Assembly: GCA_913055635.1 (NCBI GenBank)
Contig: CAJXLK010000002.1
Span: forward strand, 62,001-126,000
Length of the DNA: 64,000 bases
Direction: 5' to 3'
DNA from: an uncultured Bacteroidota bacterium
GTDB taxonomy: Bacteria > Bacteroidota > Bacteroidia > Bacteroidales > UBA12077
Part shown: piece after piece, positions 47,117-63,656 of the stretch
Layout of the letters: every line of letters begins with the position of its first letter
Position numbering within the stretch: the stretch's first letter is position 1
Notes under the pieces: model-generated
Database searches by the model: none
What the model saw: the letters and a program-made list of their open reading frames with translations, nothing else
Told to the model about the DNA's origin: nothing
Program-made: the position numbers and the translations under genes

Positions 47117-47309
47117 AATCCGGCCTATTTAAAACATGGGTGTATTATTTATAACCCTAGTGATGGAATGGCAACTTGCTGCTGTTGATCAACCCCCACC
47201 AATAATCTCCATCATTCATCTTAAAACAAAACATTGATAATCAAACTCTTAACAACAATCCTTATTGGAATATTATCAATGTTCCCTTGCAATCCATTGA
47301 TCGGATGAA

Positions 47310-47528: not shown

Positions 47529-47550
47529 AGTGATGATTTTTTTTTTGGCT

Positions 47551-47740
47551 CATTGTTCATTGCTCCCTACTCCCTACTCATTACTCCCTACCAATTACTC
47601 CCTACTAATTACTCCCTACTCATTACTCCCTACTAATTACTCCCTACTATTTTACTCCCTACTCATTACTCCCTACTAATTACTCCCTACTAATTTACTC
47701 CCTACTAATTACTCCTTACTCATTGTTCATTGCTCCCTAC
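47551..47740. repeat. 15-bp minisatellite, TACTCCCTACTAATT type, between hypF and hypC
   Basis: About a dozen units of ACTCCCTACT(A/C)ATT run from ~47561 to ~47740, with small length changes. The array is bounded on both sides by a copy of CATTGTTCATTGCTCCCTAC (from 47551 and from 47721). It abuts the hypF stop codon. No unit pairs to form a hairpin, and copies touch without spacers, so it is not a CRISPR. Confidence 0.85.
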
Positions 47741-50150: not shown

Positions 50151-50765
50151 TCATTGAATCACCCCCGAATGGTACATCAGCCGCTCCAGCTCCACCATCA
50201 GGTTGACATTATTGACCAGCACGTGGTCGGGGGTTTTCAACAGAACAGGAGCCAAATTGAGTATGCCAGATATGCCGTGGGATACCAGTTGATTGGCCGT
50301 TTCCTGGGCAGCTACTTCCGGTACGGCCAATACAGCCACCGAAACATTGAAGGCTTCAATGACCTCGCCCAAACTCTCCATGGAATAAACCGGGATGTGA
50401 AACTTCTTGTTCAGCTTGGCCGGATCGATGTCAAAACCCGCCACCACATTCATGTTGTGCTCCCTGAAGCCCTTATACATGGACAGGGCCCGCCCCATAT
50501 TTCCCATCCCCACAACGATGACATTTTGTATGCGGTCTTTCCCAAAGATCTTTTCCAGGGAAGACAACAAATCATCCACTTCATAACCTCCCCGGCGGTG
50601 GCCTTTGATGCCAAAGGCCGAAAAATCCTTCCGCACCAGCTCGGCACTGACCCCCACCTCTTTGCCCAGGGTATAGGAAAAAACCTTCTCCAGGCCCATC
50701 TTCTTTAATCGGATCAACCCCATGCGGTATCGAAGCAATCGTTTGGTCTGCGTGAACGATGCCAT
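50151..50765 (-). CDS. rex: Redox-sensing transcriptional repressor Rex
   Basis: 204 residues. The winged-helix DNA-binding domain covers ~5-75 (LLRYRMGLIRLKKMG, VSAELVRKDFSAFGIKGHRRGGYEVDDLL). The Rossmann domain follows with VVGMGNMGRALSMY, GFDIDPAKLN and LAVPEVAAQETANQLVSHGISGILNLAP. Rex represses fermentation and hydrogenase genes when NADH/NAD+ is low and releases DNA when NADH rises. It is divergent from the hydrogenase operon and upstream of the hyp genes, so both are plausible targets. Confidence 0.93.
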   Translation of the reverse strand: MASFTQTKRLLRYRMGLIRLKKMGLEKVFSYTLGKEVGVSAELVRKDFSAFGIKGHRRGGYEVDDLLSSLEKIFGKDRIQNVIVVGMGNMGRALSMYKGFREHNMNVVAGFDIDPAKLNKKFHIPVYSMESLGEVIEAFNVSVAVLAVPEVAAQETANQLVSHGISGILNLAPVLLKTPDHVLVNNVNLMVELERLMYHSGVIQ

Positions 50766-50954: not shown

Positions 50955-50972
50955 TTGTGAAAAACATAACAA
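50955..50972 (+). promoter_or_regulatory. Candidate Rex operator before the hydrogenase operon
   Basis: TTGTGAAAAACATAACAA matches the Rex consensus TTGTGAA-N4-TTCACAA fully in the left half and at 5 of 7 positions in the right half. It lies 5 bp before the first ATG of the hydrogenase operon, downstream of a possible TTG/TATCTTGA promoter (50923-50953). Further left half-sites TTGTGAA occur at 50771 and 50800, just upstream of rex, which would permit autoregulation. Confidence 0.45.
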
Positions 50973-50977
50973 TAATC

Positions 50978-51982
50978 ATGCACAAATATTACACCCTAAC
51001 CAAGGAAGAATGGGATCGGGCACTGATCCATCTTATTTCCCAATACCTGTTCTATGCCCCTTTGGGGGAGGGGGAACAACAGGATTATGATCTGATCGGC
51101 GAAAAAGACATCCCCCGTATCATCTACAACCAACCCAAGCCCGCCACACCCCTGAAGACCTTCTTCCTGCCGGTGGCCGAAAACGTGATCGCCCCCACTT
51201 CCCATCCTACCCCCCGCATCATTATGGGCATCCCGGCGTGCGATCTGGCGGCCATGAACATCCAGGATGAGATGTATTTGAACCGCGATTACCTCGACGG
51301 TCCCTATCAAAAACGCCGCGAAGCCACCATCCTCATTGGCACAGATTGTCACAGCATCCAGCCCCACTGTCACTGCACCACCTATGGGGTCAAACCTTAT
51401 CCCCAAGAGAACCATGACTTGAGCTTAAGCCTGAGTGATCAAACCATATACCTGTATACCCACTCAGAAAAAGGAAGGGCCCTGATCAAAGAAATTGAAA
51501 AATACAGCGCCCCGGGTGCCCCTACTGAAAATGAGATTCAGGCCCTGTTTGATAAGCGGGAGGAAATTGAAAGGAAACTCAATCAAAACAACCAGGAATT
51601 ACCCAACTACCAACAAACGGGTGAATTGATTGACCAATCAGATGCGGAGATCTGGAAAAGGTATTCTGAAACCTGCGTCTCGTGTGGGGCGTGTGCCACC
51701 ATATGCCCTACTTGCACCTGCTTCCTTTTACTGGAGCGGCCCGGTTTTGAGAAAGTACGCCACCTGGATGCATGTCAGTATCCGGGTTTTGAAAAGGTGG
51801 CCGCCGGAGAGGATCCGTTAAGACCACTATATAAAAGGTTTTACAACCGATATATGTGCAAATATGTGTGGAAACCCCAGAAATTCGATGCCCTGGCCTG
51901 TACCGGCTGCGGGCGTTGCATAGAAGCCTGCATCGGCAAGATTAACAAGAATGAACTTTTCCAGGAATTGGCCAACCATTAA
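50978..51982 (+). CDS. Iron-sulfur diaphorase-type subunit (sulfhydrogenase beta / AsrA-like)
   Basis: 334 residues, similar in layout to the beta subunit of archaeal cytosolic sulfhydrogenases and to AsrA of anaerobic sulfite reductase. Two C-terminal [4Fe-4S] motifs are CVSCGACATICPTC (from ~residue 233) and CTGCGRCIEAC (from ~308). An additional conserved Cys region lies in the first half: PACDLAAMN, GTDCHSIQPHCHC. It should pass electrons between the FAD subunit encoded next and another carrier. The frame could open at GTG 50957, but the ATG at 50978 leaves the probable Rex site outside the gene. It is the first gene of the long operon. Confidence 0.82.
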   Translation: MHKYYTLTKEEWDRALIHLISQYLFYAPLGEGEQQDYDLIGEKDIPRIIYNQPKPATPLKTFFLPVAENVIAPTSHPTPRIIMGIPACDLAAMNIQDEMYLNRDYLDGPYQKRREATILIGTDCHSIQPHCHCTTYGVKPYPQENHDLSLSLSDQTIYLYTHSEKGRALIKEIEKYSAPGAPTENEIQALFDKREEIERKLNQNNQELPNYQQTGELIDQSDAEIWKRYSETCVSCGACATICPTCTCFLLLERPGFEKVRHLDACQYPGFEKVAAGEDPLRPLYKRFYNRYMCKYVWKPQKFDALACTGCGRCIEACIGKINKNELFQELANH

Positions 51983-51992
51983 CCTGCCTGCC

Positions 51993-52814
51993 ATGAAAAA
52001 CAACAACATTTATCAACCCATAAAAGCCAAATTGGAAGAGGTCATCGAGGAATCTCCGACCATTAAGACGTTTGTGCTTAAACCCGAGAACCACTTCTCC
52101 TTCCACACCGGCCAGTTTGTGGAGCTGGTGCTCGAAGGGGTAGGTGAAGCCCCTTTTACCCCTTCCTCCTCGCCACTGGTAAGGAATAAAATCGACATTA
52201 CCGTGATGCGTACCGGTTACCTGACTCAGCGGCTGCATCAACTCAAAGGAGGCGAAACCCTGGGCATCAGAGGCCCTTATGGCCGGGGCTACCCCCTGGA
52301 AAAACTCTACGGCAAGGAAGTGCTCGTACTCGGAGGAGGCTGCGGCTTCGCCCCTTTGCGCTCCCTTCTTTACAACCTGCAGGCCGAACAGGAGCGCATT
52401 AAAAAAGTTACCTTTTGCTATGGCTCCAAATCCCCCCAGGAATGCATCTATGAACCCTATATCGATGAGCTGCGCAATGTGCCCAAATTCGAAGTCATGC
52501 GAACAGTGGACGAAGCCGATGAATCGTGGACCGAGGAGGTAGGCGTGGCCACCGTTCTGCTCGATAAAATAGACATCAATATTGACGAGTCGGTGGCCGT
52601 TGTGGTCGGGCCTCCCATCATGATGAAGTTCAGCGTCCAAAAACTCCTGGAAATGGGATACCCTGAACACAACATCCTGCTTTCCATGGAGAAAAACATG
52701 TCGTGTGGCCTGGGCAAATGTGGCCACTGTATGATGGGCGAATACTTTGTCTGTAAAGACGGACCTGTTTTCAGTTATGATCAAATCAAAGATAAACCCG
52801 ACATCTGGAAATAA
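51993..52814 (+). CDS. FAD/NAD(P)H-binding diaphorase subunit (sulfhydrogenase gamma / AsrB-like)
   Basis: 273 residues, ferredoxin-NADP+ reductase fold. The FAD part has FHTGQFVELVLEGVGEAPFT followed by SSSP. The NAD(P)H part has VLGGGCGFAPLRSLLYNL and FCYGSKSPQECIY. A C-terminal [2Fe-2S] site is CGLGKCGHCMMGEYFVCKDG. It would oxidise or reduce NAD(P)H in the cytoplasm. I use the ATG at 51993 just after the previous stop, since an upstream ATG at 51951 would overlap that gene by 32 bp. NADH versus NADPH preference is not readable. Confidence 0.87.
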   Translation: MKNNNIYQPIKAKLEEVIEESPTIKTFVLKPENHFSFHTGQFVELVLEGVGEAPFTPSSSPLVRNKIDITVMRTGYLTQRLHQLKGGETLGIRGPYGRGYPLEKLYGKEVLVLGGGCGFAPLRSLLYNLQAEQERIKKVTFCYGSKSPQECIYEPYIDELRNVPKFEVMRTVDEADESWTEEVGVATVLLDKIDINIDESVAVVVGPPIMMKFSVQKLLEMGYPEHNILLSMEKNMSCGLGKCGHCMMGEYFVCKDGPVFSYDQIKDKPDIWK

Positions 52815-52825
52815 AATCCATTGAT

Positions 52826-53338
52826 ATGACCCAAAAAATCCTCATCGATATGACCAAGCTCCGGGATCACCAGATTACCGGACGGGGCGATCAGCCGCGG
52901 TTGGATGGGATACTCACCGAACATCCCAACACCGATGGGCTCAAGACCCTCAGGGAATTGGCCGTCTTTCGTTTTACCTGCCGCAGGTGCGAAGATGCCC
53001 CCTGCATCGAGGTTTGCCCGGCTGATGCCCTGGAAAAAGATCCGGACGGGATGATTGTGCGCCACACCAATCTATGCATATGCTGTAAGTCGTGTGTCAC
53101 GATCTGTCCGTTTGGCACCATGATGAGCGACTTCTTTGAACACAAGCGCCAGGGAGAAAATTACTTCAACCTGGAAGATGAAAAAGAACTGCGCCGTTTT
53201 GTGGAATATAACCCGGGGGGGGCCGTCCGGCTGGTAGAAATGGAAGCCGACCCCGACCAGAACATTTATGCATTGAATGACCGGGTGCTGGTCAAAGAGG
53301 TTCCCTATGACAAACTAAAACAAGAAAACCATGGGTGA
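52826..53338 (+). CDS. 4Fe-4S polyferredoxin-like subunit of the hydrogenase operon
   Basis: 170 residues. Two cluster motifs are CRRCEDAPCIEVCP and CICCKSCVTICP, spaced ~30 residues apart, resembling HycB/HydN/CooF-type electron-transfer subunits. The sequence after ~105 has no further cluster motif. Its place between the diaphorase pair (11 bp upstream) and the membrane subunit (8-bp overlap downstream) suggests it wires the diaphorase to the hydrogenase. This is an inference. Confidence 0.83.
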   Translation: MTQKILIDMTKLRDHQITGRGDQPRLDGILTEHPNTDGLKTLRELAVFRFTCRRCEDAPCIEVCPADALEKDPDGMIVRHTNLCICCKSCVTICPFGTMMSDFFEHKRQGENYFNLEDEKELRRFVEYNPGGAVRLVEMEADPDQNIYALNDRVLVKEVPYDKLKQENHG

Positions 53339-54263
53339 AATACTGTACCATTTTTTCGTCTATCCGGGGCTATTATTTGCAGGGGTCATCGGGGGTCTGC
53401 TGGCCTGGTTCGACCGTAAGGTCACTGCCCAGGTGCAATTCCGCAAAGGCCCCCCCTTATTGCAGCCTTTTTATGACTTTTTAAAGCTGCTGTTGGTCAA
53501 AGAAACCATTCTGCCGGCCAGGGGCTCGCGAGCGACCTTTCTGATCGCCCCCATATTGGGGCTTTTTGGTGCCACCGCTGCCGGAACCTTCATCCTGCTG
53601 CCCCTGTTCAACATCAACATCGGTTTTGAGGGCGATGTGATGGTGATTTTTTACCTGTTAACCATCCCTTCCCTGACATATATCATCGGGGCACTGGCTT
53701 CAGGAAATCCTCTGGCCTCAGTGGGCGCCTCGCGCGAGATGAAACTCATCATTTCCTATGAACTGACCTTCCTGCTGTTTTTTGCCGCCATTGTGCTTAA
53801 AGCTGATCAACACATGCAGATGAGCCAGATCATCCAGATGCAGGCCCAATCAGGTCCTTTCATCAGCAGCCTCTCCGGGGTCCTGCTTTTTATCGTCGGG
53901 GTGTTTTGCATACAGGCCAAAATGGGCATGGTTCCCTTCGATCAGGCCGAAGCCGAAACCGAATTGTCCGAAGGTTCCTTCATTGAATATTCGGGAACAG
54001 TCTACGCCCTGGTCAAACTAACCCGCTATATCATGCTGTTCATCCTTCCAGCCCTGCTGGTGGGGTTCCTCATAAGCGGGTTCAACCTGAGCGGAACCGG
54101 TATCATCTGGGCGATTCTGAAAATTCTGGCCGTGGTCCTGCTGATGACCCTCATCCGCAACACCAATCCACGGCTTAAAATCAAACAGGCCATGCGGTTC
54201 TTTCTCATTGGCATGAACGGTTTGGCCATTGTGGCCATTATTTTGACATATCTGAGTCTATAA
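53331..54263 (+). CDS. Hydrogenase membrane anchor, NuoH/MbhM-like
   Basis: 310 residues, mostly membrane helices, homologous to the NuoH (complex I subunit 1) family. Conserved loops are LAWFDRKVTAQVQFRKGPPLLQP (N-terminal loop) and MVPFDQAEAETELSEG (the NuoH loop facing the quinone or ferredoxin arm). It anchors the soluble hydrogenase arm to the Mrp-type ion channel part. It overlaps the preceding ferredoxin gene by 8 bp. Confidence 0.92.
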   Translation: MGEILYHFFVYPGLLFAGVIGGLLAWFDRKVTAQVQFRKGPPLLQPFYDFLKLLLVKETILPARGSRATFLIAPILGLFGATAAGTFILLPLFNINIGFEGDVMVIFYLLTIPSLTYIIGALASGNPLASVGASREMKLIISYELTFLLFFAAIVLKADQHMQMSQIIQMQAQSGPFISSLSGVLLFIVGVFCIQAKMGMVPFDQAEAETELSEGSFIEYSGTVYALVKLTRYIMLFILPALLVGFLISGFNLSGTGIIWAILKILAVVLLMTLIRNTNPRLKIKQAMRFFLIGMNGLAIVAIILTYLSL

Positions 54264-54273
54264 ACCAATTAAG

Positions 54274-54687
54274 ATGGGACTGAAAAGTTTTTGTCTGAAA
54301 AAATCACTGTGGGTCTATCATTTTGCAGGGGCTTCCTGCAACAACTGTGACATTGAGATCCTTGATGTGCTCACTCCAAGATACGATGTGGAACGCTTCG
54401 GGATGCAACTGGTGGGCAGTCCCCGCCATGCCGATGTGATACTGATCAGCGGTTCGATCAACCAAAGGGATAAACCCCGGCTTAAAGAAGTCTACCACCA
54501 GGCCTCCAAGCCGGTTTTTGTGGTAGCCTTTGGTGCTTGTGGGTGTACCGGTGGGGTGTTCGCCGAAGGCATCACCTTTGCCGGGCCGGTGGACCAGATC
54601 GTTCCGGTTGACGCCTATATACCGGGATGTCCGCCCAAGCCGGAAGCTATGATCTCCGGTCTCAGCAAACTGATGCAAACCATATAA
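54274..54687 (+). CDS. [NiFe] hydrogenase small subunit, NuoB/MbhJ-like
   Basis: 137 residues, compact group 4 small subunit. The proximal [4Fe-4S] ligands are in GASCNNCDIEILD, GACGCTGGVF and PGCPPKPEAM. No signal peptide or extra clusters are present, as expected for complex-I-related hydrogenases. It lies 10 bp after the NuoH-like gene and upstream of the NuoC-like gene. Confidence 0.93.
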   Translation: MGLKSFCLKKSLWVYHFAGASCNNCDIEILDVLTPRYDVERFGMQLVGSPRHADVILISGSINQRDKPRLKEVYHQASKPVFVVAFGACGCTGGVFAEGITFAGPVDQIVPVDAYIPGCPPKPEAMISGLSKLMQTI

Positions 54688-54696
54688 ACAGGGCTC

Positions 54697-55134
54697 ATGA
54701 AAAAACAAACCTTTTTGGAAAATATGCGCGAACAGTTGCCTCAGGGGGTCATTCAAACCGGGCAGATTCGGGACAACCGCTTTGTCATCGACATTGAACC
54801 GGCGGCCCTGCTCACCATAGCCGGTTATCTCTACCACACCCTGAAGTACCGCTTTATCATTGCCTCTGCCTTTCACACCAAAAAAGGCTTTGAGATCATG
54901 TATCATTTCAGCGACGATGCGGCAGGCAACATCATCAACCTGCATGTGATCCTGCCCCAGGATCAACCCGAGATTGAGTCCCTGACCCATATGCTATCCG
55001 GGGCCAACTGGATTGAACGGGAGATGCGGGAGATACTGGGCATCACCTTCCGCAACCATCCCGAACCCGAAAAGCTCATATCTGATGGCAACTGGGCAGA
55101 AGGGGTTTATCCGTACCGTAAAAATTTTAAATGA
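54697..55134 (+). CDS. NuoC/MbhK-like hydrogenase subunit
   Basis: 145 residues. The C-terminal half has the NuoC pattern: IINLHVILPQDQPEIESLTHMLSGANWIEREMREILGITFRNHPEPEKL. It is a structural subunit clamping the small and large subunits. Its stop overlaps the start of the large-subunit gene (ATGA). Confidence 0.9.
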   Translation: MKKQTFLENMREQLPQGVIQTGQIRDNRFVIDIEPAALLTIAGYLYHTLKYRFIIASAFHTKKGFEIMYHFSDDAAGNIINLHVILPQDQPEIESLTHMLSGANWIEREMREILGITFRNHPEPEKLISDGNWAEGVYPYRKNFK

Positions 55135-56336
55135 TCCATAAGATGGCCAACCAGCGAATCATACCCGTAGGTCCCTATCACCCGCTTCAGGAGGAGCCTG
55201 AACTGTTCAAGCTTTACTGTGAAGGGGAAACCGTCAAAGACATCAAATGGGAGACGGGTTACAACCACCGGGGCATCGAAAAGCTCAGTGAAAGCAAAAC
55301 CTTTGAACAGGTCTTCTTCCTGGTAGAACGAATTTGTGGGATTTGCTCCACCTCCCATCCATTTGCCTATGCCAACTGCATGGAAGAGATTGCCCAGGTG
55401 GAGCCCCCCAACCGGGCTAAATATATCCGCTCGATCGTGGGTGAACTCGAGCGCCTGCACAGCCATTATCTGTGGTTGGGCCTGGCCGGTCATTTTTTGG
55501 GCTACAACACCGTGTGGATGTGGGCCTGGAAATACCGCGAGCCCATTTTGGATCTGTTCGAGATCATCTCGGGCAACCGCAACAGTTACGCCATGTTCAA
55601 AATTGGCGGGGTAAGAAGGGATGTCACCGGCGATCAGATCGCACTGGCCCGCAAAACGATGCGTGATCTGAAAAAGAAAAATGACCTGTTGACCAAAGCA
55701 GTCACCGATGACCCGGTGATCCATGCCCGGACCAAAGGGGTGGGTACGCTGACCAAAGCCGATGTGATGGACTATGCAGCCGTGGGGCCCACGGCCCGGG
55801 CTTCAGGCTGGGCAATCGATGTGCGCCGCGATGACCCCTATGCGGCTTATGATATGGTCGACTGGAAGGTGATCACCGCAGACGATGGCGATGTCTTTGC
55901 CAAGACCCAGGTGCGGCTTTTGGAAAACTACGAATCCATCAAGATCATCGAACAGTGCCTCGACGGACTGGAAAAAGAGCCCGAGGGCGACATCGAACTC
56001 AAGGTCAAGGAGATACCCGAGGGAATAGGCACCGGCCGGGCTGAAGCCCCCCGGGGCGAAGTCTTCCACTTTGTCAAAACCGACGGGTCCAATTCACCGG
56101 TACGCCATAAGATCCGAGCGCCCAGCTACGTCAATATTGCCACCTTTAAAAAAGCCTGCGTGGGCCAAACCATCTCCGATGCCACCATCTCACTGGCCGC
56201 CGTCGACCCGTGTTACTGCTGCACCGAACGCATGGCCTTTGCCTATGACTGGCATAGCGGAGACAAAATATATGACGGCAATCAACTGGTGGAACGCTCA
56301 CGCAAAGAAACAGAAAGACTAAAAAACACCCTTTAA
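55131..56336 (+). CDS. [NiFe] hydrogenase large subunit, NuoD/MbhL-like
   Basis: 401-residue catalytic subunit of a group 4 membrane-bound hydrogenase. The N-terminal nickel ligands are Cys69 and Cys72 in ERICGICSTSHPF. The C-terminal pair is Cys361 and Cys364 in DPCYCCTER. All four nickel ligands are thus present, which separates it from complex I NuoD and from Mbx/Mbs-type paralogues that lack them. After Arg367 a 34-residue tail remains (starting MAFAYDW), similar in length and site to the peptide removed from E. coli HycE by HycI. The proteins for maturation are encoded nearby. Reaction: reversible proton reduction to H2 in the cytoplasm. Confidence 0.95.
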   Translation: MIHKMANQRIIPVGPYHPLQEEPELFKLYCEGETVKDIKWETGYNHRGIEKLSESKTFEQVFFLVERICGICSTSHPFAYANCMEEIAQVEPPNRAKYIRSIVGELERLHSHYLWLGLAGHFLGYNTVWMWAWKYREPILDLFEIISGNRNSYAMFKIGGVRRDVTGDQIALARKTMRDLKKKNDLLTKAVTDDPVIHARTKGVGTLTKADVMDYAAVGPTARASGWAIDVRRDDPYAAYDMVDWKVITADDGDVFAKTQVRLLENYESIKIIEQCLDGLEKEPEGDIELKVKEIPEGIGTGRAEAPRGEVFHFVKTDGSNSPVRHKIRAPSYVNIATFKKACVGQTISDATISLAAVDPCYCCTERMAFAYDWHSGDKIYDGNQLVERSRKETERLKNTL

Positions 56337-56346
56337 AACACTGATT

Positions 56347-58209
56347 ATGGAGGCCCTTTACTACATCATCTTTTTACCCATCGTAACCGGAATATTGCTG
56401 TTAATCCTTCCGGAGCGGCTCAAGCCCATCAAGGCAGGAATAACCCTTGTGGTGGCGCTGATGGTCTTGTACATGAGCATCGGGATGTATGGGCAGCACC
56501 CTGAAATCATCTCCCTCCCACTGGTACCAGAAGCCGGGCTCCATAGCAGCTGGATGGCAAAAACCCTGGCGGGTATGAGCCAGTTTATGAGCTTCAACCT
56601 GGATCATCTGGGTCAGTTGATCATCCTGTTTGCCGCGGGGTTTGCCGCAATCATATCCGTCTATTCCCTGATATATGTAACGCCTCAGAAAAAGATCTTT
56701 CATTTCTACCCCTTCTTCCTGATCACCCTGGGTTGTGCGATGGGTGCAGCCCTGGCCGATAACCTGCTTTTGTTCCTGTTCTTCTGGGGTGTTATGGGCT
56801 TCACCCTCTACAAGCTTATCAAAGGGAAGGATCCCAGGAGCTCAGCGGCGGCCAAAAAGACCCTGATCATCGTGGGCGCCTCAGACGGCATTATGATCCT
56901 GGGGGTGGCGATCATTTGGAAACTAACCGGCACCTGGAGCATGAGCCAATTGTCCCTGGCCACCGCCTCTTCCCTGGAAGTGACTGCCTTCATCACCCTG
57001 TTGGTCGGGAGCTTTACCAAAGCAGGGGCTTTCCCCTTTCATTCATGGATCCCCGATTACGGTGAAAATGCACCGCCCCCTTCTTCAGCTTACCTCCCGG
57101 CTTCACTCGATAAACTACTGGGCATCTACTTTTTGGCCCGCATCTGCATAGACCTGTTCCGGGTGAACCCAACCCTGACCCTCATCCTGCTGATCATTGC
57201 CGTGACAACAATCATCATTGCCGTAATGATGGCCCTGATTCAACATAATTTCAAGCGGCTGCTGAGTTTTCACGCCGTATCCCAGGTAGGATACATGGTG
57301 CTGGGCATCGCCCTGGCCACCCCCCTGGGCGTGGCTGCAGGTCTGTTCCATATGGTCAACCACGCCCTCTATAAAAGTGGTTTGTTCCTTTCGGCTGGCA
57401 GCATCCAGGAAAAAACCGGCCAGGTCGACCTGGATCAATTGGGAGGCCTCTCATCCAAAATGCCCGTAACCTTCTTCTCCGCCCTGATATTTGCCCTGGC
57501 CATATCCGGCATCCCGCCCCTTAACGGCTTTGCTTCTAAATGGATGATTTACCAGGGCATCATAGATTTTGGCCAGACAGGTGGCATTGCCAGCCAACTG
57601 TGGATTGTATGGCTGGCCCTGGCTGTTTTGGGTTCCGCATTGACGTTGGCCAGTTTCATCAAATTCATTTCAGGCATTTTCCTGGGAAGAAGAAAGTCCG
57701 CTTTCGACAACCTCAAGGAGGTCAACTTTTTAATGTGGTTCCCAAAACTCCTGCTGGCCCTTACCTGTATAGGCTTTGGTGTGTTCGCCACCAGTTGGGT
57801 GGTACCCCATTTGTTCCAACCCTATACAGGAACCATCGAGTATATCGGGATCTGGGAATCCTCTACGGTCTCATTGCTGGTGGTATTCTCCCTCATCCTG
57901 GGCGGGGTGTTCTATTTGCTGGGCAATGTAAAAAACATGCGCACGGCCGATGCCTTTCTCGGGGGTGAAGCCATCCAGGAAAAAGCCGGTTACCGCGTTA
58001 CCGAATTTTACAACACCGTACGGGAGCTCAGGCCCCTGAAGGGGCTTTACGATAAGGCCGAAAAAAGCTGGTTTGATATCTATTACCTGTTTAAAAACCT
58101 GTTCTACGGGCTTCACTACGTATTCAAAGTCCTCCACACCGGGGTGATGACCACCTATGTGATTTGGATTTTTGCCGGTTTTATCATCATCATGCTTTGG
58201 CTGCTCTAA
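56347..58209 (+). CDS. NuoL/MrpA-like antiporter subunit (additional)
   Basis: 620 residues, polytopic, of the complex I NuoL/M/N and MrpA/D family. Landmarks are the lysine-containing helix LLVGSFTKAGAFPFHSWIPDY, then PPSSAYLPASLDKLLGIYFLARI, RLLSFHAVSQVGYMVLGI, LFHMVNHALYKSGLFLSAGSIQ and SGIPPLNGFASKW. A C-terminal extension of ~130 residues with helices follows. It is distinct from the MrpD-like subunit at 59614-61149, so the complex has two antiporter-like subunits. Confidence 0.92.
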   Translation: MEALYYIIFLPIVTGILLLILPERLKPIKAGITLVVALMVLYMSIGMYGQHPEIISLPLVPEAGLHSSWMAKTLAGMSQFMSFNLDHLGQLIILFAAGFAAIISVYSLIYVTPQKKIFHFYPFFLITLGCAMGAALADNLLLFLFFWGVMGFTLYKLIKGKDPRSSAAAKKTLIIVGASDGIMILGVAIIWKLTGTWSMSQLSLATASSLEVTAFITLLVGSFTKAGAFPFHSWIPDYGENAPPPSSAYLPASLDKLLGIYFLARICIDLFRVNPTLTLILLIIAVTTIIIAVMMALIQHNFKRLLSFHAVSQVGYMVLGIALATPLGVAAGLFHMVNHALYKSGLFLSAGSIQEKTGQVDLDQLGGLSSKMPVTFFSALIFALAISGIPPLNGFASKWMIYQGIIDFGQTGGIASQLWIVWLALAVLGSALTLASFIKFISGIFLGRRKSAFDNLKEVNFLMWFPKLLLALTCIGFGVFATSWVVPHLFQPYTGTIEYIGIWESSTVSLLVVFSLILGGVFYLLGNVKNMRTADAFLGGEAIQEKAGYRVTEFYNTVRELRPLKGLYDKAEKSWFDIYYLFKNLFYGLHYVFKVLHTGVMTTYVIWIFAGFIIIMLWLL

Positions 58210-58228
58210 AAATCAATATAGCGAATAT

Positions 58229-58756
58229 ATGGAAACATTGCTAACCATCATACTGGGATTCATGATCATCGGGGCCATTTATGCCCTTCATGCCAAAGAT
58301 CTGCTTTCAGCAGTGATCGCCCAGGGTATTGTCGGATATGGGCTGGTTATCTGCTTCCTTCATTTGAGTGCCCCGGATCTGGCCATTGTCCAGATCGTGG
58401 TCGAGACCATTACCCTGATCATCATGGTAGCCGTGGTGCTCGACAGCAGCCGCGAAGAAATCAAATCGCCCCCTTCCTGGCGGAGCACCATCAACGTGGT
58501 AGTGGGATTGGTCTTTATCGGCTTCATGCTCTATTTCTTCGATATGGCTACCGCCTCCCTGGAACCCTTTGGGGAACATACCCTGCGCATGTCTCAAACC
58601 TACACCCAGCAGGGGGCGGCCCAAACGGGGGCTGCCAACCTGGTAACAGGAGTATTATGGGACTTCAGGGCTTACGACACCCTGGGTGAAGCCACCATCC
58701 TGTTTACCGCAGCCCTGGGCGTGTTGACCGTGCTGCGCATGAAAGGAAAAAAATAA
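58229..58756 (+). CDS. MbhD-MbhE-type fused Mrp subunit (DUF4040)
   Basis: 175 residues. The first part is a DUF4040/MbhD-like unit with DLLSAVIAQGIVGYGLVICF and DLAIVQIVVETITLIIMV. The second contains VTGVLWDFRAYDTLGEATILFTAALGVLTVLR, the MbhE-like (MrpA C-terminal) motif. These are separate genes in Pyrococcus MBH and joined here. The ATG at 58229 fits the first helix, and the longer frame from 58172 runs back into the preceding gene. Confidence 0.87.
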   Translation: METLLTIILGFMIIGAIYALHAKDLLSAVIAQGIVGYGLVICFLHLSAPDLAIVQIVVETITLIIMVAVVLDSSREEIKSPPSWRSTINVVVGLVFIGFMLYFFDMATASLEPFGEHTLRMSQTYTQQGAAQTGAANLVTGVLWDFRAYDTLGEATILFTAALGVLTVLRMKGKK

Positions 58757-58831
58757 CGGCGGAAGCTGTCCTATAAACAGGGGCCCGCCCAACAAATAAA
58801 AAGCCCGCGAAAACAATAAAATGAAAAACCG

Positions 58832-59272
58832 ATGAAAGGACTCACACCCATTGTAAAAAAAATAGCCCAGCTGATGTGCGGGATGATCTTCATCTATGGC
58901 ATTTACATCGTAGTACACGGACACCTCACACCAGGCGGGGCATTTGCCGGGGGAATTATACTGGCCGGGGCCTTCATCCTGCTGATCCTGGCTTTCGGCA
59001 GCGAGGTGATCAAACTCCGCAAAGAAGAATCAGGCTCTTCTGTCTCGGAAAGCTTATCGCTGCTGGTTACTCTTATTCTGGCCTCAACCGGGCTGCTGAT
59101 CGGAAGCAAGGTCTTTTTTAAAAATTTCCTTCCCCCCGGACAAATCGGACAACTCGTTAGCGCCGGTGCCATTCCCCTCTACAACATCCTGATCGGCATT
59201 GAAGTGGCAGCGGCCATCATTACCATATTTCTGGCTTTAATCATCTTTAAAGAAGAGGAAGAACAACGATGA
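58832..59272 (+). CDS. MrpB/MnhB-like subunit (MbhF)
   Basis: 146 residues. The segment IVKKIAQLMCGMIFIYGIYIVVHGHLTPGGAFAGGIILAGAFI is the MnhB domain signature. Four hydrophobic helices are visible. It is part of the antiporter module. It overlaps the next gene by 4 bp (ATGA). Confidence 0.92.
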   Translation: MKGLTPIVKKIAQLMCGMIFIYGIYIVVHGHLTPGGAFAGGIILAGAFILLILAFGSEVIKLRKEESGSSVSESLSLLVTLILASTGLLIGSKVFFKNFLPPGQIGQLVSAGAIPLYNILIGIEVAAAIITIFLALIIFKEEEEQR

Positions 59273-59610
59273 TCATTTATTTTATGTGTTTTATCCTGTT
59301 TCTGGTGGGTCTTTACGGCATGGTGACCCGACGCAACCTGATCAAAATTGTGATCAGCTTTACCATCATGGAATTCAGTATATTCTTGTTTTTTGCCCTG
59401 ATCGGCTATATTGACCAGGGATATGCCCCCATTTTAAGCCAAAATGTACCGGAACAAGCCACTTTCGTGGATCCACTGCCCCAGGCCATGGTATTGACGG
59501 CCATTGTCATCGGCCTGGCCACCTCGGCCATGCTGCTGGCCATTGCCATCCGGCTCTATAAAAAATACGGAACTTTTAATATAAGGAAAATCAACAATTT
59601 AAGAGGATAA
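59269..59610 (+). CDS. MrpC/MnhC-like subunit (NuoK family)
   Basis: 113 residues with three helices. Conserved parts are LVGLYGMVTRRNLIKIVISFTIMEFSIFLFF and DPLPQAMVLTAIVIGLATSAMLLAIAIRLYKKYG. The acidic residue in the second helix (MEFS) is the NuoK-type proton-path glutamate. It lies within the Mrp gene order B-C-D. Confidence 0.92.
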   Translation: MIIYFMCFILFLVGLYGMVTRRNLIKIVISFTIMEFSIFLFFALIGYIDQGYAPILSQNVPEQATFVDPLPQAMVLTAIVIGLATSAMLLAIAIRLYKKYGTFNIRKINNLRG

Positions 59611-59613
59611 GCT

Positions 59614-61149
59614 ATGACCCATCTGGTACCCTTATATGTGATATTACCCCTGGCTACCGCCTTCCTGATTCCTGTTATCGGGCGGATGGTGAAGGGATTC
59701 CAGAAGACCCTTTTCTCAGCGGTGCTGTTGTTTCTGACCGTTCTAACCTTCTACATCCTCTTTAGCGGGGTGGATCAGCCCGTAGCTTATAAGATTGGCG
59801 GCTGGGAGCCTGTTGCCGGTGTGCCCATCGCCATCTATCTGGTTATGGACGGATTGAGCGCCCTGGTACTTCTTATCATCAGCCTGATCGGATTTCTGGC
59901 AGGTTTTTATGCCATTTCCTACATCAAACGCTATACGGCTGAAAACAATTTTTATGCCCTGCTGGCCCTGATGATAGCTGGAATGAACGGGGTCGTGCTG
60001 ACCGGCGACATGTTTAACCTGTATGTGTTCCTGGAAATTGCCGTAATCGCTTCTTATGCACTGGTGGCTTTCGGCATCGAACGAACCGAGCTGGAGGCTT
60101 CCTTCAAATACCAGGTGCTCGGGGGTGTTGCTTCCCTGTTGATCCTGCTGGGGGTGGCTATGTTGTACTGGAAAACCCAGACCCTCAATATGGCCCATAT
60201 ATCACAGGTGCTAGCCCAGAGTGAAAACAATGCTTTTCTGACCTTTACCCAGATCCTGCTGATCAGCGGCTTCGGACTCAAGGCAGCGATGATCCCTTTT
60301 CATGCCTGGCTGCCCGATGCCCACTCCTCTGCACCTGCCCCGATATCGGCCATGTTATCCGGTGTGCTGATCAAAGCCGTGGGTGTTTATGCCCTGCTGA
60401 GGCTGTTTTTCAATATGTTCGCCATTGATTTCCAAATCAGCCTGGTCATTACCGCCATCGGTACCCTCTCGATGGTGATCGGGGTATTGCTGGCCATCGG
60501 CCAGTGGGACCTCAAACGCCTTCTGGCCTATCACAGCATCAGCCAAATGGGATACGTGGTCATCGGCGTGGGCATGGGGATGATATTGCTGGTGGAAGGC
60601 GGCGATCGTTCAGTGGCTTCCCTGGCTATTGCCGGAGGACTGTTCCATCTGATCAACCATGCCGTCTTTAAAGGTTTACTCTTCCTTAATGCCGGTGCCA
60701 TCGAACACGTCACCGGTACACGAAACCTTAAGATGATGGGCGGGCTGTTCAAAACCCTGCCCGTGACTTCCACCACCTCCCTGGGGGCTTCCCTGTCCAT
60801 CTCCGGTATCCCCCCATTCAACGGATTCTTTAGCAAACTGATCATTATCGTGGCGGCCATCCAGGGAGAATTTTACCTGCTGGCGGCACTCGCCGTGGTG
60901 GTCAGCATCATCACCCTGGCTTCATTCATGAAATTTCAGCGATACGCATTTTTCGATCAGCCCAAATTTTCAAAAAAAATCAGAGAAGTGCCCTTCACGA
61001 TGCGTTTTTCCATGATTGTGCTGGTCATTCTGTGTTTGGGCTTAAGCCTTTTGATTTTCCCGGGGGTAAGAGAAATCATCCTCTCCCCGGCCGTCGACGT
61101 GCTGATGGAAACAACCAATTATGCAACCACGACCTTAACCGGCATGTAA
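59614..61149 (+). CDS. MrpD/MnhD-like antiporter subunit (MbhH)
   Basis: 511 residues, about 14 helices. Landmarks are ILLISGFGLKAAMIPFHAWLPDAHSSAPAPISAMLSGVLIKAVGVYAL, RLLAYHSISQMGYVVIGV, LFHLINHAVFKGLLFLNAGAI and SGIPPFNGFFSKL. Conserved Lys and His residues in these helices form the ion path in relatives. It is the usual MrpD of the module. Confidence 0.94.
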   Translation: MTHLVPLYVILPLATAFLIPVIGRMVKGFQKTLFSAVLLFLTVLTFYILFSGVDQPVAYKIGGWEPVAGVPIAIYLVMDGLSALVLLIISLIGFLAGFYAISYIKRYTAENNFYALLALMIAGMNGVVLTGDMFNLYVFLEIAVIASYALVAFGIERTELEASFKYQVLGGVASLLILLGVAMLYWKTQTLNMAHISQVLAQSENNAFLTFTQILLISGFGLKAAMIPFHAWLPDAHSSAPAPISAMLSGVLIKAVGVYALLRLFFNMFAIDFQISLVITAIGTLSMVIGVLLAIGQWDLKRLLAYHSISQMGYVVIGVGMGMILLVEGGDRSVASLAIAGGLFHLINHAVFKGLLFLNAGAIEHVTGTRNLKMMGGLFKTLPVTSTTSLGASLSISGIPPFNGFFSKLIIIVAAIQGEFYLLAALAVVVSIITLASFMKFQRYAFFDQPKFSKKIREVPFTMRFSMIVLVILCLGLSLLIFPGVREIILSPAVDVLMETTNYATTTLTGM

Positions 61150-61150
61150 T

Positions 61151-61639
61151 ATGAAACGACATCTGGCATTATTCATCCTCACCCTGGTTTTCTGGCTGTT
61201 GATCACCCTTAGCCTTAGCCTGGCCAGTCTGATTACCGGCATCGTGGCCGCCGGGGTGACGACCCTGCTGTTCGGCAAATACTTTGTAAGGAAAGTCGGA
61301 AAATTCCTGGAACCCAAAAGATATGGATGGTTGTTGATCTACATCTTCGTCTTTCTCTGGGAATGTATCAAAGCCAATTTTGATGTGGCCTACCGGGTAT
61401 TGCATCCGGCTATGCCCATCAAACCAGGAATTGTCAGGGTACAACTGGGTATCCAAACCGACCTGGCCCGGACCATGCTGGCCAACTCCATCACCATGAC
61501 CCCGGGGACCATTGCCGTGGATATCATCGGTGATGTGATGTATGTGCACTGGATTTATGTCAGTTCAGAAGATCCCCAGGTATATTCCAGAAAGGTCTCG
61601 GGCCGGTTCGAAAAATACATCGAAAAAATCTTTGAATGA
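61151..61639 (+). CDS. MrpE/MnhE-like subunit (MbhA)
   Basis: 162 residues. The MnhE pattern is ALFILTLVFWLLITLSLS, then a C-terminal soluble part IVRVQLGIQTDLARTMLANSITMTPGTIAVDIIGDVMYVHWI. It begins directly after mnhD. Confidence 0.92.
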   Translation: MKRHLALFILTLVFWLLITLSLSLASLITGIVAAGVTTLLFGKYFVRKVGKFLEPKRYGWLLIYIFVFLWECIKANFDVAYRVLHPAMPIKPGIVRVQLGIQTDLARTMLANSITMTPGTIAVDIIGDVMYVHWIYVSSEDPQVYSRKVSGRFEKYIEKIFE

Positions 61640-61640
61640 T

Positions 61641-61904
61641 ATGGCTTTCTTACACATTTTACTGTACATACAGATCGGACTGAGCGTATTCTGCCTCTAT
61701 CGCATCATCAGGGGGCCCTCGATCGCCGACCGGATGGTGGGGATCGACATCTTCGGCATCCTGGTGGTAGGAATATGCGCCATCCTGGCGGTGGTCACCG
61801 GCAGAACCTTCCTCATTGACATCGGCATTGCCTGGGTGATTCTGAGTTTCATCGGAACCCTGACCCTGGCCAAATACATCAGTGGTAAAAAATTAAACGA
61901 ATGA
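61641..61904 (+). CDS. MrpF/MnhF-like subunit (MbhB)
   Basis: 87 residues, three helices, with the MnhF signature YRIIRGPSIADRMVGIDIFGILVVG. I place the start at the ATG at 61641, immediately after the mnhE stop. The longer frame from 61542 would lie inside mnhE. Confidence 0.92.
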   Translation: MAFLHILLYIQIGLSVFCLYRIIRGPSIADRMVGIDIFGILVVGICAILAVVTGRTFLIDIGIAWVILSFIGTLTLAKYISGKKLNE

Positions 61905-61905
61905 T

Positions 61906-62247
61906 ATGGCAAGTACAATCCTTATTGCTATCGGTGTCCTGTTCAACCTTTTTGGTTGCATAGGACTGATCCGGTTACCGGACGTATACAACAGGCTGCA
62001 GTCAGCCACCAAAACAGTTACCCTGGGAACCTGGAGCATCCTGGTGGGGGTGTTGGTGCGGTACGGTTTTATCGACATCGGGGTGAAAGCCCTGGTTGCC
62101 ATCCCCATCCTGTTCTTTGTAGCCACAGTCTCGGCCCATGCCCTGGTTCGGGGATCACATATTTTCGGCATTCCCCTGGGGAAAAAAAGTGTCCGCGACG
62201 ATTATGAACAGGAAAAAAATAATTCAATGAAAAGCAACGAGCCATGA
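61906..62247 (+). CDS. MrpG/MnhG-like subunit (MbhC)
   Basis: 113 residues, three helices. The MnhG signature is LFNLFGCIGLIRLPDVYNRLQSATKTVTLGT and the end is variable and charged. It completes the Mrp module and overlaps the next gene by 4 bp (ATGA). Confidence 0.92.
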   Translation: MASTILIAIGVLFNLFGCIGLIRLPDVYNRLQSATKTVTLGTWSILVGVLVRYGFIDIGVKALVAIPILFFVATVSAHALVRGSHIFGIPLGKKSVRDDYEQEKNNSMKSNEP

Positions 62248-62864
62248 GATATCCAAAGATTCGTGAATTGAAAGAGGCGGTTACCTCCTTGTTTTCCCCC
62301 GCCTATACCACCTCTTTCCCTAAAAAGGAGCATGTGCCCTTCGAAAAATTCCGGGGCAAGCCGGTGGTGGATGACGAAAATTGCGTGGGATGCGAAACCT
62401 GCGCCAATGTCTGCCCCTCCCTGGCCATCACCTTTGAAGATGACCGCGAGCGAGGGGTACGGGTCATCAAACGGGACTATGGCAAATGCCTTTTTTGCGG
62501 TCAGTGCGAAGAACACTGCATCACCGGCAAAGGGGTGATCCTGTCGGACCAAATATACGACCTCTCGTCTTTTGACAGACAGACCAACGTGGAATATCAG
62601 GAAAAAGAACTGCTGATCTGCAAAAATTGCGGGGCCATCATCACCACCCGCGAACACCTGCTGTTTATGCACCGAAAACTGGGCCCCAAGGCTTTCTCCA
62701 ATATAATGAATTTGAATATGCTCAATGAAAAACTGAAACTGGCCTCGCGCGAAGAAACGCAAGTTGAACTGAGCGAGGATGAACTCAGGCGCCGCGATAT
62801 GTTCAATATCCTCTGCCCCAACTGCCTGCGGGAAGTTCAGTTAAAAGTCTTTTCAGACCGTTGA
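62244..62864 (+). CDS. 4Fe-4S subunit, NuoI/MbhN-like, with extra zinc-ribbon tail
   Basis: 206 residues. Two [4Fe-4S] sites are CVGCETCANVCP (Cys47, 50, 53 and 57) and CLFCGQCEEHC (Cys82, 85, 88 and 92), as in NuoI and MbhN, which accept electrons from ferredoxin. Beyond ~120 an added region carries CKNC (126, 129) and CPNC (191, 194), a probable zinc ribbon with a basic helix between, not found in ordinary NuoI. It is the last structural gene of the hydrogenase operon. Confidence 0.9.
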   Translation: MRYPKIRELKEAVTSLFSPAYTTSFPKKEHVPFEKFRGKPVVDDENCVGCETCANVCPSLAITFEDDRERGVRVIKRDYGKCLFCGQCEEHCITGKGVILSDQIYDLSSFDRQTNVEYQEKELLICKNCGAIITTREHLLFMHRKLGPKAFSNIMNLNMLNEKLKLASREETQVELSEDELRRRDMFNILCPNCLREVQLKVFSDR

Positions 62865-63030
62865 GGGGTTCATTCAGCCTCTTAAGGAGTTATTCAGACT
62901 GGATAAAGGATCATTCAGACCGGGGAAAGGATCATTCAGACCGGGGAAAGGATCATTCAGACCGGAAAAACATTCATTTAGACTGGGAAAAGGTCCATTC
63001 AAACTGGATAAAGGTTCATTCAGAGCGGGG
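62865..63030. repeat. 21-bp minisatellite, GATCATTCAGACCGGGGAAAG type
   Basis: About eight units, period 21 bp, vary around TCATTCAGACCGGGGAAAG. They directly follow the stop codon of the NuoI-like gene. Because the period is a multiple of three the plus strand stays open and encodes heptapeptides of the KDHSDRG type. The only start is a TTG overlapping the previous stop, so a noncoding array is preferred. Confidence 0.8.
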
Positions 63031-63170
63031 AAACAACCAACAAGAGCGCAAGGGGGTGGATTGAGTGGGGTTTATTAAAAGCTGTTTTGATCAACCACTT
63101 CATTGATCGGCATCCTAAAAAAATCCCTGAAAAGGAGGTTCATACGCCTCCATTTAAAGAGGTCTCAACC
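63031..63170. other. Remainder of the gap before the maturation protease gene
   Basis: With the 21-bp array this completes a 306-bp gene-free gap. No terminator was recognised. A possible purine-rich ribosome site (AAAGGAGG at 63130-63137) is too far (34 bp) from the ATG to be used by it. Confidence 0.5.
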
Positions 63171-63656
63171 ATGAACAACATCATCGGACATAACAACGGT
63201 CAAAACATCCTGCTGGTGGGCATTGGAAATGTTTTAAAAAAAGACGACGGGGTCGGGGTCTACATCAGTCAACATATTGGCCCGGTTGCCCGGGTAAAGG
63301 CATTAACCGTTGAAATGAGCATAGAAAATTACATTGGAAAGATCAACACATTGAATCCCGAGGTGTTGATCCTGGCCGATTGTATGGATCTGGGTGCGGC
63401 ACCCGGCCATTGGGACCTGAAGGCTGCCACAGATATTGCCGGGCATACGACCAATACCCACAACATCTCGCTGGAACAGGTATCCCAATTGTTCCACTGT
63501 CCGGTTTATTTTCTGGGGATCCAGCCCCTCGACATATCCTTTGGTGAAGGCCTGAGCCCGCAGGTCAGGAAAACAGCCGATGCCCTGGTCGAAAAAATCA
63601 ACCGCATCGGCGATGAATGGCCAGCAACAGAGCTATTAAACAACCAACATATTTAA
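63171..63656 (+). CDS. [NiFe] hydrogenase maturation protease (HycI/HyaD family)
   Basis: 161 residues. The family signature is VGIGNVLKKDDGVGVYI near the N-terminus, with Asp in KKDDG as the expected nickel-sensing residue. Other residues are ADCMDLGAAPG (second Asp) and THNISLEQV (His). It would cleave the 34-residue tail of the large subunit after Arg367 once nickel is in place. I use the ATG at 63171, since the longer frame opens at a TTG and adds a non-conserved segment. The operon position suggests a dedicated protease for this hydrogenase. Confidence 0.92.
   Translation: MNNIIGHNNGQNILLVGIGNVLKKDDGVGVYISQHIGPVARVKALTVEMSIENYIGKINTLNPEVLILADCMDLGAAPGHWDLKAATDIAGHTTNTHNISLEQVSQLFHCPVYFLGIQPLDISFGEGLSPQVRKTADALVEKINRIGDEWPATELLNNQHI

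What the first reader, a model, noticed from the sequence alone, without database searches (positions are those of the whole stretch)
50978..63656. Group 4 [NiFe] hydrogenase operon joining an Mrp antiporter and a sulfhydrogenase-type diaphorase
The gene order reads: HydB/AsrA-like, HydG/AsrB-like, polyferredoxin, NuoH, NuoB, NuoC, hydrogenase large subunit, additional NuoL-like, MbhDE, MnhB, C, D, E, F, G, NuoI-like, protease. Known archaeal MBH complexes couple ferredoxin-dependent H2 formation to Mrp-type ion pumping and do not include the NAD(P)H-reactive beta/gamma pair, which normally belongs to cytosolic sulfhydrogenases. Here both are encoded in tight sequence, from short gaps to overlaps. 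Inference: the complex could move electrons between NAD(P)H, ferredoxin and H2 using or building a sodium or proton gradient. It may be an undescribed combined architecture in Bacteroidota.
Basis: partly seen in the sequence, partly recalled or inferred. Interest (0 to 1): 0.82.

Follow-up and report, generated by a model that had tools for sequence, protein, structure and literature searches.

The report
Membrane hydrogenase with built-in NADH module
A Bacteroidales bacterium carries one gene block for a membrane, ion-pumping hydrogen enzyme joined to a part that probably takes electrons from NADH; the same block is conserved in many bacterial phyla and often carries a site for the NADH sensor Rex, but its working has not been tested here or in any paper found.

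Summary
Window 50978-63656 encodes, in order, HydB/AsrA-like, HydG/AsrB-like, a HycB/CooF-type Fe-S linker, NuoH, B, C, a [NiFe] group 4 large subunit with both nickel motifs, an extra NuoL-like protein, MbhDE, MnhB-G, a HycF/NuoI-like protein and a HycI-type protease. The diaphorase pair is not incidental. Of the 80 nearest relatives kept, 63 have enough upstream DNA and 62 of these carry the pair, in Bacteroidota, Cloacimonadota, Omnitrophota, Endomicrobia, Clostridia, Zixibacteria and Planctomycetales. In 393 genomes of the window's order, high-scoring HydG occurs in 20, all among the 21 with this hydrogenase. The window's genome has no other [NiFe] hydrogenase, HydB or AsrC by the searches made. 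Rex (NADH sensor) sites stand within 120 bp of hydB in 25 of 61 loci (controls 1 of 244); many Bacteroidota sites lie nearer to rex. HydG has Asp where the NADPH-type P. furiosus HydG has Thr. Best reading: an ion-coupled, NADH-fed, H2-evolving relative of MBH and complex I. It reaches far beyond Bacteroidota, and one such Saganbacteria region was mentioned in print in 2019 as "enigmatic". Donor, direction and ion are inferred.

The parts
43806..50023 (-). hypF, C, D, E, A, B nickel-site maturation genes (hypF 47741-50023, hypC 47310-47528, hypD 46031-47116, hypE 45025-46038, hypA 44663-45004, hypB 43806-44465)
   Evidence: Pfam hits over cut-off: HypF domains, HypD; HypC, HypA, AIRS, cobW/HypB. 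The names HypB and HypE rest on family plus context
50151..50765 (-). rex, NADH/NAD+-sensing repressor, divergent from the operon
   Evidence: NCBIfam NF003996 211 bits against cut-off 138
50955..50972 (.). Rex-type site TTGTGAAAAACATAACAA just before hydB
   Evidence: 13 of 14 scored positions with the lenient consensus (12 of 14 strict, counted by hand); controls
50978..51982 (+). hydB/asrA-like diaphorase Fe-S subunit (two CxxCxxCxxxC motifs)
51993..52814 (+). hydG/asrB-like NAD(H)/FAD/[2Fe-2S] subunit; an Asp predicts NADH
52826..53338 (+). HycB/CooF-type Fe-S linker, two [4Fe-4S] motifs
53331..54263 (+). NuoH/MbhM-like membrane subunit
   Evidence: PF00146 8e-62
54274..54687 (+). NuoB/MbhJ-like small subunit
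   Evidence: PF01058 2e-31; NF005012 over cut-off
54697..55134 (+). NuoC/MbhK-like subunit
   Evidence: PF00329 2e-21
55131..56336 (+). [NiFe] group 4 large subunit; RICGICSTSH and DPCYCCTER motifs; 34-aa C-terminal tail expected to be cleaved
56347..58209 (+). additional NuoL/MrpA-N-like antiporter subunit; TM5 Glu replaced by Gly148
58229..58756 (+). fused MbhD-MbhE-like subunit
   Evidence: PF13244 and PF20501 over cut-off
58832..59272 (+). MnhB
   Evidence: PF04039
59269..59610 (+). MnhC (NuoK-like)
   Evidence: PF00420
59614..61149 (+). MnhD/MbhH, antiporter-like subunit with TM5 Glu141 kept
   Evidence: PF00361; 6cfw_H 4e-88
61151..61639 (+). MnhE
   Evidence: PF01899
61641..61904 (+). 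MnhF
   Evidence: PF04066
61906..62247 (+). MnhG
   Evidence: PF03334
62244..62864 (+). HycF/NuoI/MbhN-like Fe-S subunit
   Evidence: 7z0s_F 3e-18, 6cfw_N 2e-13
63171..63656 (+). HycI-type maturation protease
   Evidence: TIGR00072 78 bits against 47; PF01750

Best explanation
One operon encodes a single membrane complex: an Mrp-linked group 4 [NiFe] hydrogenase whose electron input is an NADH diaphorase (HydG: FAD and [2Fe-2S]; HydB: two [4Fe-4S]), wired through a HycB/CooF-type linker and a HycF-type subunit to NuoB and the [NiFe] site. The NADH module of complex I is in effect replaced by the sulfhydrogenase beta/gamma pair, and the quinone site by a proton-reducing nickel site. Electrons run NADH to FAD to the Fe-S chain to H+, coupled to ion movement through NuoH and the Mrp-like arm. 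The main physiological direction is disposal of NADH as H2, with the ion gradient built when H2 is very low and spent when it is not; reduced ferredoxin may enter at the linker or HycF-type subunit as a second donor. Rex derepresses the operon when NADH is high. Shown here: gene content, conserved linkage, intact nickel ligands, maturation tail, Rex-type sites. Inferred: one transcript, physical complex, NADH as donor, ion coupling, direction.
For: In the genome samples the pair is in 17 of 17 fetched loci of the window's order that reach it (19 fetched) and 7 of 7 of G267's order (9 in all). HydG of 452 bits or more in 20 of 393 genomes, all 20 among the 21 with this hydrogenase; the other 373 have at most 310 bits or no hit at 1e-30. 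Own genome: one PF00374 match, one HydB at E 0.001, no AsrC over cut-off; its second NuoD-like protein has no CxxC. HydG and large-subunit distances correlate (r 0.885 over 52 sequences, kept of 64 by a length filter; 0.743 within 29 Bacteroidota; 0 of 2000 permutations reach either). Median gaps 3, 9, 9 bp for hydB-hydG-linker-nuoH. Both nickel CxxC pairs in 81 of 81, counting L119, which the first pattern missed for another residue; C-terminal tail of 31-58 aa in 81 of 81. Rex-type site within 120 bp of hydB in 25 of 61 loci against 1 of 244 upstream regions of other ORFs and 5 of 1142 random windows; within 250 bp, 39 of 61 against 1 of 244 and 12 of 1125. rex gene within 3 kb in 24 of 48 loci. 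Asp in 67 of 68 operon HydG (3 fragments left out); P. furiosus HydG has Thr there, followed by Arg; PyrK chains have Asp. HycB of HDCR and FHL are among the best solved matches of the linker; HycF is the best of the NuoI-like subunit.
Against: Co-occurrence does not prove a physical complex. In Bacteroidota only 9 of 32 loci have the Rex-type site within 120 bp of hydB; 16 of 32 have one farther off, at the rex end, where it may serve rex alone. No site of 12 or more was found in 22 of 61 loci, among them two of three Cloacimonadota, both Endomicrobia and 8 of 17 Omnitrophota; no rex hit lies near in 24 of 48 loci. Rex also represses a ferredoxin-dependent NiFe hydrogenase in Caldicellulosiruptor bescii (PMC6391272, passages), so Rex control does not by itself make NADH the donor. 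Two of 1142 random windows reach 13. L076 (N gaps, Mnh genes missing too) lacks the pair. Twenty of 70 loci have a hydG-linker gap of more than 60 bp, 14 of them over 200 bp with other genes in some. The 3b-like HydG of L119 also has the Asp, so it does not mark the operon. NADH to H2 is uphill under standard conditions (textbook).
Confidence: 0.64

Rival explanations
1. Ferredoxin-driven MBH in which HydBG is an output or side branch: reduced ferredoxin is oxidised, part of the electrons make H2 with ion pumping and part reduce NAD+ (or H2 is oxidised to make NADH).
For: The nearest solved relative of the hydrogenase core is the ferredoxin-dependent MBH; hydrogenases of Cloacimonadota and Omnitrophota were called group 4g, putatively ferredoxin-coupled (PMC8542988; PMC5037454). 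Diaphorases are reversible (general knowledge).
Against: The window's genome already has Rnf for ferredoxin to NAD+ (RnfC 578 bits, over cut-off). Rex derepression at high NADH fits NADH consumption better.
Confidence: 0.2
2. NADH and reduced ferredoxin are used together (confurcation) to make H2, as in HydABC, with ion pumping on top.
For: Two possible entry points; HydG is related to PyrK and to a subunit of NfnI (5jca_S 1e-15); Rex control was inferred for a HydABC in Caldithrix (PMC5317091).
Against: Family scans of HydB and HydG show one flavin domain and no NuoF/NuoG-type domain; an NADH-dependent [FeFe] hydrogenase (group A6) is encoded just beyond the window, so the function would be duplicated.
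Confidence: 0.09
3. HydBG is a separate soluble enzyme (sulfite reductase AsrAB, or diaphorase of a cytosolic 3b hydrogenase) that only shares the transcript.
For: Family names of the pair come from those enzymes.
Against: No AsrC over cut-off, no second PF00374 match, no second HydB in a 99%-complete genome; linkage across phyla.
Confidence: 0.07

Closest known systems
Archaeal MBH (Pyrococcus furiosus, HydDB group 4d)
   Same: NuoHBCDI-like core, MbhDE, MnhB-G, intact [NiFe] site; MbhL and MbhH are the best solved matches
   Different: MBH has no HydBG pair and no HycB-type linker, and one MnhD-type subunit (subunit composition recalled); here an extra NuoL-like subunit with the TM5 Glu lost
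Sulfhydrogenase I, HydDB group 3b (P. furiosus HydBGDA)
   Same: HydB and HydG
   Different: The cytosolic alpha/delta hydrogenase is absent; HydG has Asp where the P. furiosus protein has Thr followed by Arg, so NADH rather than NADPH is predicted
Formate hydrogenlyase / HDCR
   Same: HycB-type linker and HycF-type subunit
   Different: Input module is HydBG, not formate dehydrogenase
Saganbacteria RX5A group 4 region (PMC6349859)
   Same: Group 4 hydrogenase, Mrp subunits, cooF, asrA, asrB; said to be related to Zixibacteria and Omnitrophica
   Different: Has a molybdopterin oxidoreductase as well, as L115 (Zixibacteria) does here; function left open by the authors. The published sequences were not compared with the window
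Respiratory complex I
   Same: Shared NuoBCDHI and antiporter-type subunits, NADH input proposed
   Different: No NuoEFG in the operon; nickel ligands kept; product H2, not quinol

Membership tests
[NiFe] group 4 energy-converting hydrogenase | Two CxxC nickel motifs in the large subunit and a cleavable C-terminal tail | tested here: met
   81 of 81 for both cysteine pairs; tail 31-58 aa in 81 of 81; window sequence read directly. Cleavage not tested
[NiFe] group 4 energy-converting hydrogenase | NuoB, C, D, H, I-type core plus antiporter-type membrane subunits | tested here: met
HydDB subgroup 4g or 4d | Assignment by the HydDB classifier or tree | not testable with these tools
   HydDB not on hand; PMC8542988 names hydrogenases of the same phyla 4g, not shown to be the same sequences
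Archaeal MBH | Ferredoxin-only input, no HydBG | tested here: not met
   HydBG conserved in 62 of 63 loci; ferredoxin use not testable
Group 3b sulfhydrogenase | Cytosolic alpha and delta subunits with HydBG | tested here: not met
   One PF00374 match in the genome, the group 4 large subunit
Anaerobic sulfite reductase AsrABC | AsrC | tested here: not met
   No TIGR02912 hit over cut-off; ten weak ones below it
Ehr/Mbx complexes without nickel | Loss of the nickel-binding cysteines | tested here: not met
Rex regulon | Operator TTGTGAANNNNTTCACAA upstream of the operon | tested here: met
   Window site 13 of 14 lenient positions. Family: 25 of 61 loci within 120 bp of hydB (9 of 32 Bacteroidota, 16 of 29 others), controls 1 of 244 and 5 of 1142. 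Binding not tested

The most novel reading that the evidence does not exclude
A widespread bacterial complex that makes H2 from NADH alone by coupling to an ion gradient: complex I with protons as the acceptor. That would be a third answer, besides confurcation with ferredoxin and very low H2, to how anaerobes dispose of NADH as H2, used in at least seven phylum-level lineages. An antiporter-like subunit that has lost its TM5 glutamate would tune the ion stoichiometry.
Probability: 0.38. Interest if true: 0.82.

Novelty: new variant of a known kind. Interest (0 to 1): 0.62.

Why it matters
NADH oxidation to H2 is a bottleneck of anaerobic food webs. If this complex links it directly to an ion gradient, energy budgets of uncultured Bacteroidales, Cloacimonadota and Omnitrophota change, and a purely ferredoxin-coupled label for such hydrogenases is incomplete. 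It may also mean that some 'anaerobic sulfite reductase' calls in metagenome genomes (AsrA/AsrB without AsrC) are hydrogenase diaphorases; that is an inference. It is also an evolutionary parallel to complex I, in which a different NADH module was added to a related core.

Tried and rejected
Rejected readings: AsrAB sulfite reductase (no AsrC over cut-off); service to a cytosolic 3b hydrogenase (no second PF00374 match); a nickel-free Ehr/Mbx complex (nickel cysteines kept); a chance neighbourhood or assembly join (62 of 63 loci). L076 is the one counter-example; it has N gaps and lacks the Mnh genes as well, so it may be an assembly fault, but this was not resolved.

Led nowhere or limited: no solved structure matches the C-terminal 130 aa of the extra NuoL-like subunit at E 1. 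No hydB-hydG fusion was found among the loci. The mnhD row of the distance table is spoiled, because where mnhD was not in hand the NuoL paralogue was picked up; the 10 'G' entries for mnhD are such loci (nine without mnhD, L113 with a partial one). In one search, 12 of 64 loci were dropped by a length filter. No structure prediction was run, since the tool folds single chains and the question is about a complex. G508 has hydG on another contig than the hydrogenase, whose contig ends in nuoH. Of the 44 genomes with lower-scoring HydG, ten got a locus (L229-L238) and seven of these were read by eye: a HydB-like gene stands next to several of them, and in L234 an ORF that looks like a molybdopterin enzyme.

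Literature: 10 searches. The only print mention of the combination found is PMC6349859. Of the papers opened I saw passages only. Most subscription papers are not in the library, so earlier mention there cannot be excluded. Supplements could not be read.

An earlier statement that chain 4ylf has the aligned Asp was withdrawn, since the printed alignment has a gap there.
Full report
WHAT IS THERE. The window lies in an unnamed, 99%-complete 4.08-Mb genome. Its nearest named relatives by the large subunit are titled Bacteroidales bacteria. At 50978-63656 sixteen tightly packed genes plus a protease gene run on the plus strand. The large subunit carries RICGICSTSH and DPCYCCTER, followed by 34 more residues. 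The P. furiosus MbhL chain in the solved structure ends at the corresponding Arg, so the tail should be the part that the HycI-type protease (63171-63656) removes. Genes of all six Hyp kinds lie on the other strand at 43806-50023, and rex stands between them and the operon. This looks like a complete [NiFe] hydrogenase island. Just right of the window, on the opposite strand, is an [FeFe] group A6 enzyme (L136; NF040763 over cut-off).

THE PAIR BELONGS TO THE HYDROGENASE. Translated searches with 18 window proteins and a count show hydB and hydG in 62 of the 63 loci with at least 4.3 kb of upstream DNA. Of the 17 shorter loci, 4 have both, 3 have hydG near the contig end, and 10 have neither in the DNA held. 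By record title, loci with both are Bacteroidota 35 of 43, Cloacimonadota 4 of 6, Omnitrophota 17 of 18, Clostridia 2 of 2, Endomicrobia 2 of 2, Zixibacteria 1 of 1, Planctomycetales 1 of 1, Vermiphilus 1 of 1, unclassified 3 of 5 and Elusimicrobia 0 of 1 (contig too short). These are titles of metagenome bins and may be wrong in single cases. L076 is the exception among the 63.

A sample not tied to the peptide patterns gave 21 of 393 genomes of the window's order with the large subunit. Nineteen such loci were fetched besides the window: 17 have both genes (one of them, L191/L208, with 4.6 kb between two nuoB pieces), one has hydG cut by the contig end, and one contig ends in nuoH. In G434, not fetched, hydG lies 2.3 kb upstream of the large subunit by coordinates. 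In the order of G267, 9 of 164 genomes have it; 7 of the 7 loci that reach have both genes, 2 end earlier. The second group 4 hydrogenase of G504 (L199, 46% identical in the best segment) shows no such pair, a contrast within one genome.

The reverse test is as clear. A HydG profile scores 452 bits or more in 20 of 393 genomes of the order, all among the 21 with this hydrogenase; the 21st (G408) is the locus cut at hydG. The next best score is 310 bits (lists compared by eye). In G508 hydG is on another contig. The window's genome has a single PF00374 match, a single HydB at E 0.001 and no AsrC over cut-off; its second NuoD-like protein, on contig C41, has no CxxC and so is no nickel enzyme. 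HydG and large-subunit distances correlate at 0.885 (52 sequences of 64) and 0.743 (29 Bacteroidota), never reached in 2000 permutations. That shows shared history, not contact.

HOW IT PROBABLY WORKS. HydG has FAD and NAD domains and a [2Fe-2S] motif (67 of 67 long enough). HydB has two CxxCxxCxxxC motifs in 65 of 67; the other two are fragments. The linker at 52826 has HycB subunits of HDCR and FHL among its best solved matches, and the NuoI-like subunit matches FHL HycF best. In FHL these two pieces connect the formate dehydrogenase to the hydrogenase (recalled), so the layout suggests that HydBG is plugged in where FHL has its dehydrogenase. L115 (Zixibacteria) has a molybdopterin oxidoreductase (PF00384) between hydG and the linker, which fits an exchangeable input.

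The pyridine nucleotide is probably NADH. Where P. furiosus HydG (its NCBIfam model is named NADPH-dependent) has SVTR, operon HydG has Asp in the Thr column in 67 of 68 (L083 has Asn; three fragments left out), and PyrK chains have Asp in the printed alignments. That Asp favours NADH in this superfamily is recalled. The 3b-like copy in L119 also has Asp, so this is a prediction about the cofactor, not a mark of the operon.

Rex supports the NAD(H) link. The consensus TTGTGAANNNNTTCACAA is taken from PMC5317091 and PMC6391272 (passages). Within 250 bp of hydB the best 18-mer reaches 12 of 14 lenient positions in 39 of 61 loci, against 1.7 expected from shuffles, 1 of 244 regions upstream of other ORFs and 12 of 1125 random windows. 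Many Bacteroidota sites in that count lie about 200 bp off, beside the divergent rex gene, and may serve rex. Counting only sites within 120 bp of hydB leaves 25 of 61 loci (9 of 32 Bacteroidota, 16 of 29 others), 19 of them with 13 or 14 positions, against 1 of 244 (none at 13) and 5 of 1142 (two at 13 or more). Full sites stand 18-37 bp before hydB in five Omnitrophota, two Clostridia and L113; L115 (Zixibacteria) and L119 (Planctomycetales) have 13 of 14. The window's own site overlaps the bases just before hydB (50955-50972). A rex hit lies within 3 kb of hydB in 24 of 48 loci. Against this, 22 of 61 loci have no site of 12, and Rex controls a ferredoxin-dependent NiFe hydrogenase in C. 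bescii too.

ENERGETICS (textbook values and arithmetic). NADH is near -280 to -320 mV; H2 is -414 mV at 1 bar but about -266 mV at 1 Pa and pH 7. So NADH to H2 needs energy at ordinary H2 and is about neutral near 1 Pa. A reversible ion-coupled complex could spend the gradient in the first case and build a little in the second. Which ion is moved is unknown. MnhD has the TM5 Glu in 59 of 69 sequences extracted, and the other ten are misassigned or partial. The extra NuoL-like subunit has Gly there in 69 of 71 but keeps the four lysines checked in 71 of 71; the residue roles are recalled. It may not pump as its relatives do.

KNOWN OR NEW. HydDB describes 4g as loosely clustered and of undetermined role (PMC5037454, passages). 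Cloacimonadota and Omnitrophota hydrogenases were called 4g and Mrp-linked, and the passages seen do not mention a diaphorase with them (PMC8542988). PMC6349859 mentions one Saganbacteria region with asrA, asrB, cooF, Mrp and group 4 subunits and leaves its role open. So the combination has been seen at least once in print, as far as the ten searches show; its wide conservation, the tie of this HydG type to the hydrogenase, the Rex sites and the NADH prediction were not met in those searches. I file it as a new variant of group 4 energy-converting hydrogenases.

Noticed in passing
window 62884-63036: A 21-bp tandem repeat of about seven copies lies between nuoI and the protease gene, where relatives have a median gap of 0 bp (38 loci).
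   Followed up: partly
own genome contig C41, L138:17-11159: A second complex-I-like cluster: small Mnh-like ORFs and a 1042-aa ORF read by eye, NuoB-like (PF01058), a NuoD-like protein without CxxC, and a 614-aa Fer4_20/Pyr_redox_2 protein, so a nickel-free relative with another pyridine-nucleotide module.
   Followed up: partly
L136:802-4294 (just right of the window): [FeFe] group A6 hydrogenase with a NuoF-like partner and a small NuoE-like ORF, and further on (L136:9068-14592) a formate-dehydrogenase-like protein with another NuoF-like ORF, close to the [NiFe] island.
   Followed up: partly
L041, L042, L045, L051, L052, L054, L055, L063, L069, L070, between hydG and the linker gene: A similar-looking protein of 151-156 aa sits in ten Bacteroidota operons (a fragment also in L044); the one scanned (L041) is a cyclic-nucleotide-binding domain with no other Pfam hit.
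   Followed up: partly
window 56347-58209 and 70 relatives: The extra NuoL-like subunit has Gly in place of the TM5 Glu in 69 of 71 sequences; L090 and L115 have Glu.
   Followed up: partly
L115:5722-7626: Zixibacteria operon with a molybdopterin oxidoreductase between hydG and the linker, like the published Saganbacteria region.
   Followed up: partly
L119:413-4503: A second HydB/HydG pair followed by NuoB-like and large-subunit-like matches, possibly a group 3b hydrogenase, stands directly upstream of the group 4 operon.
   Followed up: partly
L229-L238: A second, lower-scoring HydG class in 44 of 393 genomes of the order; in the seven loci read by eye a HydB-like gene is often next to it, and in L234 an ORF that looks like a molybdopterin enzyme.
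   Followed up: partly
A5 alignment, window 52826-53338: The linker has two [4Fe-4S] motifs in the window but about four in the Clostridia loci L104 and L105 (by eye).
   Followed up: no
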